Shown here piece by piece: positions 22-2,209 of a DNA stretch of 34,905 bases. A program made the position numbers and the translations under genes. Numbering within the stretch: position 1 is the first letter of the stretch; every line of letters begins with the position of its first letter. The notes under the pieces are model-generated. The model saw only the letters and a program-made list of their open reading frames with translations. It did no database searches and had not been told where the DNA came from. The DNA lies in IMG/VR virus record IMGVR_UViG_3300009529_000026, positions 1 through 34,905 of that record. One strand, written 5' to 3'. Source of the stretch: a virus.

Positions 22-193
22 CGAGGGTGATCCAGCGGTGTGCTGGATGCCAGTGGGACTACATCTCACATAAACCGTAGGCCGGTGGTTCGAGCCCACC
101 TCCTCCCATGTTGGTGGGAGGGTAGCTCAGTGGTAGAGCAGCGGACAGATTGTCTCACGACCAACTTGCCAGCTCACCACTGGATCATCCTCG
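22..193 (+). ncRNA. Structured RNA unit 1 framing a permuted tRNA
   Basis: Stem P1 pairs 22-46 with 169-193 (23 of 25 positions pair, counting G-U). Inside it lie GGATGCC (45-51), P2 (GTGGGAC 53-59 with GTCTCAC 152-158), TACATC (60-65) and CTTGCC (165-170). The cargo between the P2 strands is a tRNA whose 3' part (about 66-108) precedes its 5' part (116-144). Unit 2 begins at the very next base. The pairing is read directly from the sequence. The identity of the RNA is unknown to me, and a role in tRNA maturation is inference. Confidence 0.8.
66..144 (+). tRNA. Circularly permuted tRNA, anticodon possibly CAT
   Basis: The 3' half comes first. Its T-arm is GGTGG (84-88), loop TTCGAGC, CCACC (96-100), followed by the acceptor 3' strand TCCTCCC (101-107) and discriminator A108. 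After a 7-nt spacer comes the 5' half: acceptor GGGAGGG (116-122), TA, and the D-arm GCTC..GAGC (125-139). The acceptor strands pair at all 7 positions. GCGG (141-144) pairs with CCGT (75-78) as the anticodon stem. If 144 is joined to 66, the loop is CACATAA, giving anticodon CAT with an unusual A33. No CCA is encoded. Permutation is well supported; the exact joint and the anticodon are tentative. Confidence 0.7.
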
Positions 194-472
194 GAGAGTA
201 CCTATGGCGGCGACCGGATGCCGTCGGGTCTACATCACAATGACGGCCATAATGTAGCTAACTCCCACCTCCAACGGAGGAGAGACAGCGAGCAGAATCC
301 CACGGCGACGTGGGCTGCGCACCGAATACGATCACCCCAGTTCAGGCACCGTTTGCTTCGGCAACCGTACAGCCGTACTGGGAATCGTACAGGGGGCCAT
401 ATACGGTACTGCCTCGTGCAGTGCCTAGATTGACTCGGCCACTCCTTGCCGATCGTCGCCACAGGTACTCTC
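194..472 (+). ncRNA. Structured RNA unit 2 with a 195-nt folded insert
   Basis: P1 pairs 194-217 with 449-472 (24 positions, two mismatches). GGATGCC is at 216-222, P2 pairs GTCGGGTC (223-230) with GACTCGGC (432-439), TACATC is at 231-236 and CTTGCC at 445-450. The cargo (237-431) has no tRNA halves I can recognise but contains several helices: 268-272/276-280, 299-303/310-314 extended by 292-295/315-318, 327-332/384-389 with 336-341/377-382, and 408-412/418-422. It may be a different RNA cargo or a heavily diverged one. No protein product is likely here. Confidence 0.7.
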
Positions 473-473
473 T

Positions 474-637
474 GAAGACAGCGCATTGGCCGCTCGGATG
501 CCCGGTAGGACTACATCCATTTGGAGGACGAGGTCGGGGGTTCAAATCCCTCTGCACCCACTACGGGTGTATAGCTCAGTGGTAGAGCGCGAAAAACGTC
601 TTGCCATCTCTTGCCGAGCTGCCTGTGCGCTGCCTTC
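474..637 (+). ncRNA. Structured RNA unit 3 framing a permuted tRNA-Gln
   Basis: P1 pairs 474-497 with 614-637 (21 of 24 positions). GGATGCC is at 496-502, P2 pairs GGTAGGAC (504-511) with GTCTTGCC (598-605) at all 8 positions including G-U, TACATC is at 512-517 and CTTGCC at 610-615. The cargo is the permuted tRNA at 516-591. P1 differs in sequence from the other copies while still pairing, as expected if the structure rather than the sequence is kept. Confidence 0.8.
516..591 (+). tRNA. Circularly permuted tRNA-Gln (anticodon TTG)
   Basis: The 3' half begins near 516. T-arm GGGGG (536-540), loop TTCAAAT, CCCTC (548-552), acceptor 3' strand TGCACCC (553-559), discriminator A560. A 4-nt spacer is followed by acceptor 5' strand GGGTGTA (565-571), TA and D-arm GCTC..GAGC (574-588). 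The acceptor pairs at 7 of 7 positions with one G-U. Joining base 591 to base 516 gives a perfect 5-bp anticodon stem and loop ATTTGGA, with U33 and anticodon TTG (521-523), which reads Gln codon CAA. No CCA is encoded. The joint is inferred from folding only. Confidence 0.75.
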
Positions 638-648
638 CTTTTCTCCGT

Positions 649-757
649 GAGAGTCGTGCATGTGCTACCTGGATGCCAGGTCGGGTGTACATCTCCTATC
701 CAAGGTGAAGACAACCCACTCGGCCACTCCTTGCCGGGTTGCACGTGCACGGCTTTC
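649..757 (+). ncRNA. Structured RNA unit 4, nearly empty copy
   Basis: P1 pairs 649-672 with 734-757 (23 of 24 positions, several as G-U). GGATGCC is at 671-677, P2 pairs GGTCGGGTG (679-687) with CACTCGGCC (717-725) at 9 positions, TACATC is at 688-693 and CTTGCC at 730-735. Only 23 nt lie between TACATC and the 3' strand of P2, and no tRNA parts are present. It shows the minimal element without cargo and suggests that the element can exist independently of a tRNA. A linear tRNA starts 4 nt after it. Confidence 0.75.
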
Positions 758-760
758 CTT

Positions 761-835
761 CCTGACATGGTCCAACGGTACGACGCGTGGCCCATAACCA
801 CGAGATCCTTGGTTCAACTCCAGGTGTCAGGACCA
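761..835 (+). tRNA. tRNA with CAT anticodon (Met or Ile2), linear, CCA encoded
   Basis: This is a conventional cloverleaf. Acceptor CCTGACA pairs with TGTCAGG at 7 of 7 positions. The anticodon stem is CGTGG/CCACG with loop CCCATAA, and the T-arm is CTTGG, loop TTCAACT, CCAGG. Discriminator A832 is followed by an encoded CCA (833-835). The anticodon is CAT, so it serves Met, or Ile if lysidine-modified; the sequence does not decide. Position 33 is C instead of the near-universal U. Confidence 0.85.
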
Positions 836-838
836 ACT

Positions 839-914
839 GCGGGTGGCCGGTCGGCCATCGGACCCAGGCCCATAACCTGGGGTAAGCAGGTTCGACTCCT
901 GTATCCCGCTCCCA
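839..914 (+). tRNA. tRNA with CAT anticodon, linear
   Basis: It starts 3 nt after the preceding tRNA. The anticodon stem CCAGG/CCTGG holds loop CCCATAA (anticodon CAT, again with C33), and the T-arm is GCAGG, loop TTCGACT, CCTGT. The acceptor is weaker: GCGGGTG (839-845) against ATCCCGC (903-909) gives 5 pairs and 2 mismatches next to the D-arm. The 3' end could be 910 or the CCA at 912-914. Met, fMet and Ile2 are all possible. It may be partly degenerate. Confidence 0.65.
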
Positions 915-915
915 T

Positions 916-1064
916 GGGGAAATCAACGGATGCCTGTGAGGATTACATCCCTCACCAACCTGAGGGCCTAGCTCAATTGGTAGAGCGCCAGATTCATACT
1001 CTGGAGATGGTGGTTCGAGTCCCCGGTCAACGTTTGTCTTCACACTCCCTTGCCGTTGGTCCCC
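916..1064 (+). ncRNA. Structured RNA unit 5 framing a permuted tRNA
   Basis: P1 pairs 916-919 and 922-929 with 1053-1064 (12 bp with a 2-nt bulge), shorter than in the other copies. GGATGCC is at 928-934, P2 pairs TGTGAGGAT (935-943) with GTCTTCACA (1036-1044) at 9 positions including G-U, TACATC is at 944-949 and CTTGCC at 1049-1054. The cargo is a tRNA with its break in the acceptor stem rather than in the anticodon arm. Confidence 0.75.
949..1026 (+). tRNA. Permuted tRNA (CAT) broken in the acceptor stem
   Basis: The body is linear: acceptor GAGGGCC (962-968), TA, D-arm GCTC..GAGC (971-986), anticodon stem CCAGA/TCTGG with loop TTCATAC (anticodon CAT, 995-997, normal U33), then the T-loop TTCGAGT (1014-1020). 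No complete acceptor 3' strand follows. CCCTC, discriminator A and CCA instead lie upstream at 949-957. Joining GG (1025-1026) to CCCTC (949-953) gives 7 of 7 acceptor pairs. The T-stem is imperfect (a T-C mismatch). Permutation is the best fit but less certain than for units 1 and 3. Confidence 0.6.
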
Positions 1065-1238
1065 TCCAGTTTGCTCCCGGCTGCGTGTGCGCCTTCGCGG
1101 CCCTCTTGGGTTTGGCGGTGAACCCGTACCCGGTGATGGGTGAGATAGCCGCCACTATCCGAGCCCCTAATCGGGGCCTGTTAGATCTCGGGCCGCCTGT
1201 GAGCGGCCCACGCTTTCCCCGGCCTCCGGCCGATATGA
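1065..1238 (+). other. Hairpin-rich RNA leader to the terminator, no gene seen
   Basis: No tRNA or protein gene is recognised. Several short hairpins stand out: GATAG (1144-1148) with CTATC, GCCCC (1163-1167) with GGGGC (1173-1177), and GGGCCGC (1190-1196) with GCGGCCC (1203-1209). An alternative helix CCGAG (1159-1163) with CTCGG (1187-1191) overlaps two of them. It could be an additional small RNA or simply the 3' part of the tRNA transcript. Confidence 0.35.
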
Positions 1239-1342: not shown

Positions 1343-2209
1343 ATGGGAACAGCAGTCGAGGCTAACCAGACGATTCAGGAGAAGTTGGACAAGCTGGCGC
1401 TCACAACGGAGTGCCTGGATGTGCTGCCGGTCGATTACGCCTGGAGTGATCACCACGCAGAGTGGGAGATCGCACCCGAGCTGATCGTCTGTCCAAAGTG
1501 TGGGGGCGACGAGACCGTGGAGTGCGAGTCGTGCGACGAGGGCCAGGTAGTGTGCCCCGTGTGTGCGGGTCAGGACACTGACTGCCCTGACTGCGCGGGC
1601 TCCGGCAAAGAGGAGTGCAAGTCCTGCGGGGGCAGCGGTTCGGTGGACACCGGCAATACCATGCTCAGTGAGTGCACCGACTGCGGCGGCGAAGGCACAG
1701 TTGACTGCGAGTCGTGTGGTGGCGACGGCAAAGCCGAGTGCGGGTCCTGCGACGGCGAAGGCACGGTCGAATGCAGCGTGTGCAGCGGCGAAGGCACAGT
1801 TGACTGCGACTACGAGGACTGCTCCTCCGGTTCGCTCTATGACACGTACGAACCTATGATGGACTACTACTACCCACTCCCGTCGGGGTTCAGCGTGCCG
1901 GAAGACATCCACGAAGCGCTCGACAACTGCACGCTGATCTTGCTCACTGACGAGGGGCGCTATGTCCTCGCGCTGAACGGCGGTGGTATGGACACGAGCT
2001 GGCAGATCTGCTCGACGTTCGTGAACCTCGGCTACTTGCCGCCGACGCACTTCTGCGATCTGCCGCGCATGAAGCAACTCTGTGACGACCAGATGAAGCT
2101 GGTCGTCGCTGCGTGCAAGCGCTCGGCCGAGGTCCAGATCCGTAGCCACGAGTGGGTCCGAGACAAGCTCGCGCAGATCCAGCTGGACATGGATGCCGGG
2201 CGCCTCTAG
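1343..2209 (+). CDS. DnaJ-like cysteine-repeat (zinc-binding) protein
   Basis: A 288-residue protein with nine CxxC pairs at residues 50-53, 61-64, 71-74, 81-84, 92-95, 111-114, 122-125, 133-136 and 144-147, then C155 and C160. Several follow the CxxCxGxG pattern of the DnaJ zinc domain, which normally has only four. There is no J domain. The C-terminal half (about 170-288) is acidic to neutral and unrecognised. Near-identical DNA around 1685 and 1787 points to recent tandem expansion of the repeat. It has its own promoter and terminator and a purine-rich ribosome site just before the ATG. A chaperone-like or RNA/protein-binding role is inference. Confidence 0.85.
   Translation: MGTAVEANQTIQEKLDKLALTTECLDVLPVDYAWSDHHAEWEIAPELIVCPKCGGDETVECESCDEGQVVCPVCAGQDTDCPDCAGSGKEECKSCGGSGSVDTGNTMLSECTDCGGEGTVDCESCGGDGKAECGSCDGEGTVECSVCSGEGTVDCDYEDCSSGSLYDTYEPMMDYYYPLPSGFSVPEDIHEALDNCTLILLTDEGRYVLALNGGGMDTSWQICSTFVNLGYLPPTHFCDLPRMKQLCDDQMKLVVAACKRSAEVQIRSHEWVRDKLAQIQLDMDAGRL

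What the first reader, a model, noticed from the sequence alone, without database searches (positions are those of the whole stretch)
22..1064. Five-copy structured RNA element that frames tRNA genes
Five tandem units share one architecture: a long, copy-specific stem P1 (12-25 bp), then GGATGCC, P2 5' strand, TACATC, cargo, P2 3' strand, a C/T-rich linker, and CTTGCC joining P1. P1 and P2 differ in sequence between copies yet pair in each, with many G-U or compensated positions, so the fold appears to be selected. The invariant bases cluster in the internal loop between P1 and P2 (ATGCC opposite CTCCTTG) and just after P2 (TACATC), as in small ribozymes or processing signals. I do not recognise it as group I, group II, hammerhead, HDV or twister. 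Possible roles are self-cleavage and circularisation, or recognition by a processing enzyme.
Basis: partly seen in the sequence, partly recalled or inferred. Interest (0 to 1): 0.95.

Follow-up and report, generated by a model that had tools for sequence, protein, structure and literature searches.

The report
Phage Y RNA array mimicking tRNAs
The five structured elements are a tandem set of phage Y RNAs, the RNA partners of the ring-shaped Ro60 protein, and two of them carry complete tRNA sequences in scrambled (circularly permuted) order, so they are not a new self-cutting RNA but an unusually rich version of a known RNA family.

Summary
In detail: five tandem RNA elements at 22-1066 share one stem architecture. 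The suggested new ribozyme or processing signal is not supported. They are Y RNA-like (Yrl) RNAs. P1, the GATGC/CTTGC internal loop and P2 form the Ro60-binding stem; the 'cargo' is the effector module. Units 1 and 3 match Rfam YrlA (40 and 47 bits, below the 69-bit gathering score). The same stem was found in 74 of 80 bacterial Ro60 loci and 47 of 73 phage Ro60 loci, always on the Ro60 strand (426 of 426). Of 13 records examined that hold the element (the window included), 10 encode Ro60. The window does not, but its contig ends at the array. Units 1 and 3 hold circularly permuted tRNAs (Met-CAT, Gln-TTG). Two features go beyond the canonical tRNA-mimic description I know. (i) In 19/28 phage and 52/82 bacterial permuted modules the whole anticodon arm is present (shuffles: about 1 and 3). 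(ii) Unit 2 belongs to a Y RNA class carrying sequence like 23S rRNA helices 69-71. One relative (L151) has the stem inserted, unpermuted, into a tRNA-Leu anticodon loop. Verdict: new variant of a known kind.

The parts
22..193 (+). Y RNA unit 1: P1 22-45/170-193, GATGC 46-50, P2 53-59/152-158, TACATC 60-65, TTGC 166-169
   Evidence: YrlA 40.2 bits at 40-178
66..144 (+). unit 1 module: circularly permuted tRNA, 3' half 66-108, linker 109-115, 5' half 116-144; reconstructs as tRNA-Met(CAT) with A at position 33
188..478 (+). Y RNA unit 2: P1 188-216/450-478, GATGC 217-221, P2 223-230/432-439, TTGC 446-449; 201-nt module without tRNA features
237..266 (+). unit 2 module start, diverged copy of a 23S rRNA helix 69-71-like sequence (E. 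coli 23S 1912-1942)
474..637 (+). Y RNA unit 3: P1 474-496/615-637, GATGC 497-501, P2 504-511/598-605, TACATC 512-517, TTGC 611-614
   Evidence: YrlA 47.4 bits at 491-623
516..591 (+). unit 3 module: circularly permuted tRNA, 3' half 516-560, linker 561-564, 5' half 565-591; reconstructs as tRNA-Gln(TTG) with perfect anticodon arm
649..757 (+). Y RNA unit 4: P1 649-671/735-757, P2 679-687/717-725, TTGC 731-734, short 29-nt apical loop, no tRNA module (YrlB-like)
   Evidence: YrlB only 17.6 bits, not significant
916..1066 (+). Y RNA unit 5: P1 916-928/1054-1066, P2 935-943/1036-1044, TTGC 1050-1053; module is tRNA-like in natural order (about 961-1033)
   Evidence: unit not more stable than shuffles
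761..835 (+). ordinary tRNA-Met(CAT) gene between units 4 and 5

Best explanation
The five units are phage Y RNAs (Y RNA-like, Yrl) transcribed as an array. In each, P1 + the internal loop GATGC/YTTGC + P2 + UACA is the Ro60(Rsr)-binding stem. The part between the P2 strands is an interchangeable effector module that Ro60 presents: a permuted tRNA (units 1, 3), a 23S-helix-69-71-like module (unit 2), nothing (unit 4), or a tRNA-like sequence in natural order (unit 5). Shown computationally: the stem, its covariation, and its same-strand linkage to Ro60 genes in relatives. Inferred: that the phage's own Ro60 gene lies just beyond the contig end (or the host supplies it), that Ro60 binds these stems, and that the modules work as mimics. 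The modules would tether or decoy enzymes that recognise tRNA or 23S rRNA (PNPase, modification or processing enzymes, anticodon nucleases). In the intact RNA the full anticodon arm can form as a three-way junction with P2, so no splicing is needed.
For: Rfam YrlA 47.4 and 40.2 bits on units 3 and 1, aligned over the whole model including both stem strands; YrlA also on relatives L127, L150, L068, L159. Bacterial Ro60 loci give gathering-level YrlA (69-98 bits), some of them at elements my stem scan found independently, e.g. L561:2315 and L553:9716. Ro60 (TROVE and/or vWA_Ro60) in 10 of 13 records examined. Stem in 74/80 bacterial and 47/73 phage Ro60 loci, 270+156 elements all on the Ro60 strand and none on the other, against 8+3 in reversed-sequence controls. 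Arm-swap covariation and A-U/G-C covariation of the core closing pair (AATGC with TTGT, GATGC with TTGC). Known biology: Rsr binds the Y stem, and the tRNA-like domain binds PNPase and is a DusA/TruB substrate (PMC8394870); Y RNA 6CU1 superposes on tRNA with circular permutation (PMC11472068).
Against: No Ro60 gene in the 34.9-kb window record. Window units score below YrlA's gathering score of 69, and sub-threshold YrlA matches also appear in ordinary genomes, perhaps because of tRNA content. Unit 5 has the weakest P1 and no excess stability. Nothing here tests Ro60 binding or expression. Two other records with the element (G004 with L143, G007 with L151) also lack a detected Ro60.
Confidence: 0.9

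Rival explanations
1. The units are true circularly permuted tRNA genes: the Ro stem acts as a permuted intron that is excised (self-splicing or by nuclease plus ligase), closing the anticodon stem, after which RNase P and 3' enzymes open the circle to give working tRNAs.
For: Joining the two halves gives a perfect 5-bp, 7-nt anticodon arm with U33 and R37 in 19/28 phage and 52/82 bacterial modules (null 0.9 and 2.9); acceptor stems have at least 6 of 7 pairs in 23/27 and 76/82, and some modules encode CCA; one relative (L151) has the stem unpermuted inside a tRNA-Leu(GAG) anticodon loop, like an intron.
Against: The best junction falls at several positions relative to TACA. Many Y RNAs with the same stem have no tRNA or only a T arm. 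No RtcB in 13 records and T4 Rnl1 in only 2. The full arm can form without ligation. Unit 1 would have A33.
Confidence: 0.05
2. A new small self-cleaving or circularising ribozyme.
For: Invariant internal loop, fixed P2 length (7-9 bp in the window), conserved UACA and a conserved G-U at the fourth P2 pair (67% of elements).
Against: All features are those of a protein-bound Y stem and track Ro60 genes on the same strand; no Rfam ribozyme match.
Confidence: 0.02
3. Degenerate remains of tRNA genes interrupted by inverted repeats, with no function.
For: Unit 5 has a poor acceptor stem and low fold stability.
Against: Compensatory pairing within the array and across bacteria and phages; conserved core; strict strand and gene linkage.
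Confidence: 0.02

Closest known systems
YrlA (Rfam RF02553), bacterial Y RNA with tRNA-like domain
   Same: Terminal stem with conserved internal loop (AAUGC..CUACA / CUUGU in the model; GATGC..TACA / CTTGC here), permuted tRNA-like module with T arm first, closed acceptor stem and D arm, linkage to Ro60 in relatives.
   Different: Scores 40-47 bits against a gathering score of 69. An insert of about 14 nt relative to the YrlA model lies between UACA and the lower anticodon stem and supplies the rest of the anticodon arm. Closing pair is G-C instead of the usual A-U. Five copies in a row in one phage.
YrlB (Rfam RF02565), Y RNA without tRNA domain
   Same: Unit 4: the same stem with only a short apical loop.
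   Different: YrlB score 17.6 bits, E about 2, so not established as a member of that model.
Circularly permuted tRNA genes of algae and archaea (reviewed in PMC3978253)
   Same: 3' half precedes 5' half, acceptor ends joined by a linker, break in the anticodon arm.
   Different: No bulge-helix-bulge motif was seen by eye; the break carries the Ro60-binding stem; no evidence of ligation.
RNA repair operon rsr-yrlBA-rtcBA (Salmonella; PMC7790460)
   Same: Ro60 and Y RNA genes next to each other.
   Different: No RtcB in the phage records; Ro60 is beyond the end of the window or absent.

Membership tests
Bacterial Y RNA (Yrl) | Long 5'/3' terminal stem with conserved internal loop (Ro60 site) | tested here: met
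   All five units; same core in 438 elements of Ro60 loci and related records
Bacterial Y RNA (Yrl) | Encoded near, and on the strand of, a Ro60/Rsr gene | tested here: inconclusive
   Met in relatives: 426 elements, all same strand; 10 of 13 records with the element encode Ro60. Not seen in the window, whose contig begins 21 bases before unit 1
YrlA RF02553 | Score at or above the gathering cut-off of 69 bits | tested here: not met
   47.4 and 40.2 bits; bacterial relatives reach 69-98 bits
YrlA RF02553 | tRNA-like module with T arm, closed acceptor stem, D arm | tested here: met
   Units 1 and 3; not units 2 and 4
YrlB RF02565 | Significant match to the YrlB model | tested here: not met
   Unit 4, 17.6 bits, E 2.2
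Bacterial Y RNA (Yrl) | Binds Ro60/Rsr protein | not testable with these tools
   Needs a binding assay
Functional permuted tRNA gene | Joined, charged tRNA is produced | not testable with these tools
   Sequence permits it; no expression data
Self-cleaving ribozyme | Match to a known ribozyme family | tested here: not met
   No ribozyme family in Rfam scans of the window

The most novel reading that the evidence does not exclude
Phage and bacterial Y RNAs are complete permuted tRNA genes (and, in one class, permuted 23S helix 69-71 fragments) from which the Ro60 stem can be removed and the anticodon arm sealed, giving working tRNAs; Ro60 would then be part of an unrecognised tRNA-splicing or repair route.
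Probability: 0.05. Interest if true: 0.92.

Novelty: new variant of a known kind. Interest (0 to 1): 0.5.

Why it matters
It gives a phage array of Y RNAs with at least three kinds of module on one Ro60 stem. If the intact anticodon arms and the 23S helix 69-71-like module are functional, Y RNAs display whole tRNAs and a piece of the ribosome to cellular enzymes. That makes testable the open question of what Ro60-Y RNA particles do in bacteria and why phages carry them (decoys for anticodon nucleases or modification enzymes, or RNA quality control during infection).

Tried and rejected
Ribozyme families: no Rfam match at gathering or relaxed thresholds. Natural permuted intron-exon idea, suggested by perfect anticodon reconstruction and by L151: kept only as a low-probability rival once YrlA and Ro60 were found. 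Archaeal-type bulge-helix-bulge: looked for by eye at the junctions, not seen. Phage-encoded ligase: RtcB 0/13, T4 Rnl1 2/13. GATG/CATC pairing inside the motif: TACACC, TACATG, TACATT and TACATA in relatives break it, so not a conserved pair. blastn of 1-1080 against named phages: nothing. ARAGORN on rebuilt tRNAs does not discriminate, because shuffled inserts also pass, so only the arm-pairing statistic is used. The first viral pattern scan was mostly chance hits; only L068 was a real homologue. Key Y RNA papers (Chen 2014, Wang 2018 and two reviews) were not held, so I could not check whether intact anticodon arms or rRNA-like modules have already been described.

Full report
Observation. 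The motif GGATGCC-N-GG-NN-TACATC occurs five times in the window, all on + within positions 45-949, with none in shuffles. Each copy is flanked by a long P1 (22, 26, 20, 22 and 11 pairs) and encloses P2 (7-9 bp). In all, P1' follows TTGC directly and the 5' strand of P1 runs up to GATGC. Swapping arms between units lowers pairing, with one tie for P2 of unit 1. Units 1-4 are 5-7 standard deviations more stable than dinucleotide shuffles; unit 5 is not.

Module content. Reading the cargo of unit 3 shows a tRNA in circularly permuted order: variable loop, T arm and 3' acceptor first, then a 4-nt linker, then 5' acceptor and D arm. The two ends near P2 complete the anticodon arm: CGTCC-ATTTGGA-GGACG. 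Unit 1 is alike, with A33 (GCGGT-CACATAA-ACCGT). Joined sequences are called tRNA-Gln(TTG) and tRNA-Met(CAT) by ARAGORN, but ARAGORN also accepts shuffled inserts, so this is not evidence by itself. Unit 4 has only a short loop. Unit 5 has a tRNA-like sequence in natural order.

Relatives. A first viral pattern scan gave one true homologue, L068. Patterns joining the motif to a T arm gave more. A scanner requiring P1, P2 and core spacing found many units with few in reversed-sequence controls. One relative, L151, has the stem unpermuted inside a tRNA-Leu: 5' half, P2', CTTGC, P1 hairpin, GATGC, P2, TACA, 3' half; removing it gives tRNA-Leu(GAG). At this stage a permuted self-splicing intron looked possible.

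Identification. Relaxed Rfam searching matched units 3 and 1 to YrlA (RF02553), 47.4 and 40.2 bits, E 3e-9 and 4e-7, over the full model including both strands of the stem; other phage units match too. These are below the 69-bit cut-off, and weak YrlA matches also occur in ordinary genomes, so I tested the biology. Y RNAs partner Ro60. TROVE or vWA_Ro60 domains occur in 10 of 13 records examined. I then fetched 73 phage and 80 bacterial Ro60 loci. 74 bacterial and 47 phage loci carry the element, 270 and 156 copies, all on the Ro60 strand and none on the other (reversed controls 8 and 3). Bacterial Ro60 loci contain gathering-level YrlA matches, some at elements the scanner found. Selecting sites by the 5' motif only, 250/336 bacterial and 125/220 phage sites pair with their own arms, against 68-101 and 23-25 after swaps. 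The closing pair of the core covaries: AATGC with TTGT in most, GATGC with TTGC in the window's type. So the five units are Y RNAs.

The window lacks Ro60, but its record starts 21 bases before unit 1. In relatives the Y RNAs lie both upstream and downstream of Ro60, often within 1 kb. I expect the gene beyond the contig end; a host Ro60 is the alternative. The rest of the window is a contractile-tailed phage: head protease, major head protein, tail sheath, tape measure, baseplate.

What is unusual. (a) The YrlA model has only the lower anticodon stem; the window units have an insert there. Across 28 phage and 82 bacterial permuted modules with such an insert, 19 and 52 give a perfect anticodon arm with U33 and a purine at 37; shuffling the insert gives means of 0.9 and 2.9, maxima 5 and 8. 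Most acceptor stems are intact and some modules encode CCA. The modules are thus whole tRNAs opened within the anticodon arm, usually after position 28 or 29. (b) The 201-nt module of unit 2 aligns with that of L356 (score 87, null maximum 47) and the bacterial L547 (57, null maximum 39). Those contain GGTCCTAAGGTAGCGA of 23S rRNA helix 69-71; four clear cases score 38-46 against 23S, where shuffled cargos reach at most 36, with further phage cases. Unit 2's own start aligns to 23S 1912-1942 (28; maximum 23 in 2000 shuffles of that stretch). (c) Other modules are T arm only or absent, and L535 10060 appears by eye to be opened in the D loop.

Mechanism. Established for bacteria: Rsr binds the Y stem, the tRNA-like domain binds PNPase and is modified by tRNA enzymes (PMC8394870), the YrlA fold is a circular permutation of tRNA (PMC11472068), and YrlA has been proposed as an inhibitor of an anticodon nuclease (PMC7790460). 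Jumbo phages with TROVE or Ro60-related proteins are noted (PMC7824862, PMC7765460). I infer the same here: Ro60 holds the stem and presents mimics. Splicing is possible in sequence but not needed, and RtcB is absent from these phage records.

Novelty. Phage Y RNAs near Ro60 and tRNA mimicry are known (Chen 2014, from my memory of its abstract; the paper is not held). I have not seen whole anticodon arms or a 23S helix 69-71-like module described, but could not read the key papers, and the library searches for this returned nothing specific.

Noticed in passing
L356:2864, L461:4001, L547:9731, L497:10303, L571, L574, L592; window 237-266: A class of Y RNAs whose module starts with sequence of 23S rRNA helix 69-71 (AACGGTCCTAAGGTAGCGA), in both bacteria and phages; L547 also ends in GACCGTAAC, as if the Ro stem sat in the helix 69 loop.
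   Followed up: partly
L151:3160-3480: Y-type stem inserted unpermuted, like an intron, in the anticodon loop of a phage tRNA-Leu(GAG); no Ro60 found in that 80-kb record.
   Followed up: partly
L535:10060: Y RNA whose tRNA module looks opened in the D loop instead of the anticodon arm.
   Followed up: no
L148:11, L170 (- strand 12162): Permuted tRNA genes in phage contigs flanked by a different stem (AGGATAC/GTATCCT), without the Y core.
   Followed up: no
all Y elements, P2 pair 4: A G-U wobble at the fourth P2 pair from UACA in 67% of 438 elements, not noted in the finding.
   Followed up: partly
L489, L491, L499 (bacterial Ro60 loci): Y RNAs with a shared module ending GGTGATCCTAAGCTGTTC, of unknown resemblance.
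   Followed up: no
window 839-909: A second tRNA-like sequence (CAT) with an odd D arm, missed by ARAGORN and only weakly scored by Rfam (tRNA-Sec 22.8 bits).
   Followed up: no
window 1343-2206: A 288-aa protein with repeated CxxC motifs resembling a DnaJ-type zinc finger, just after the array; no PHROG match.
   Followed up: no
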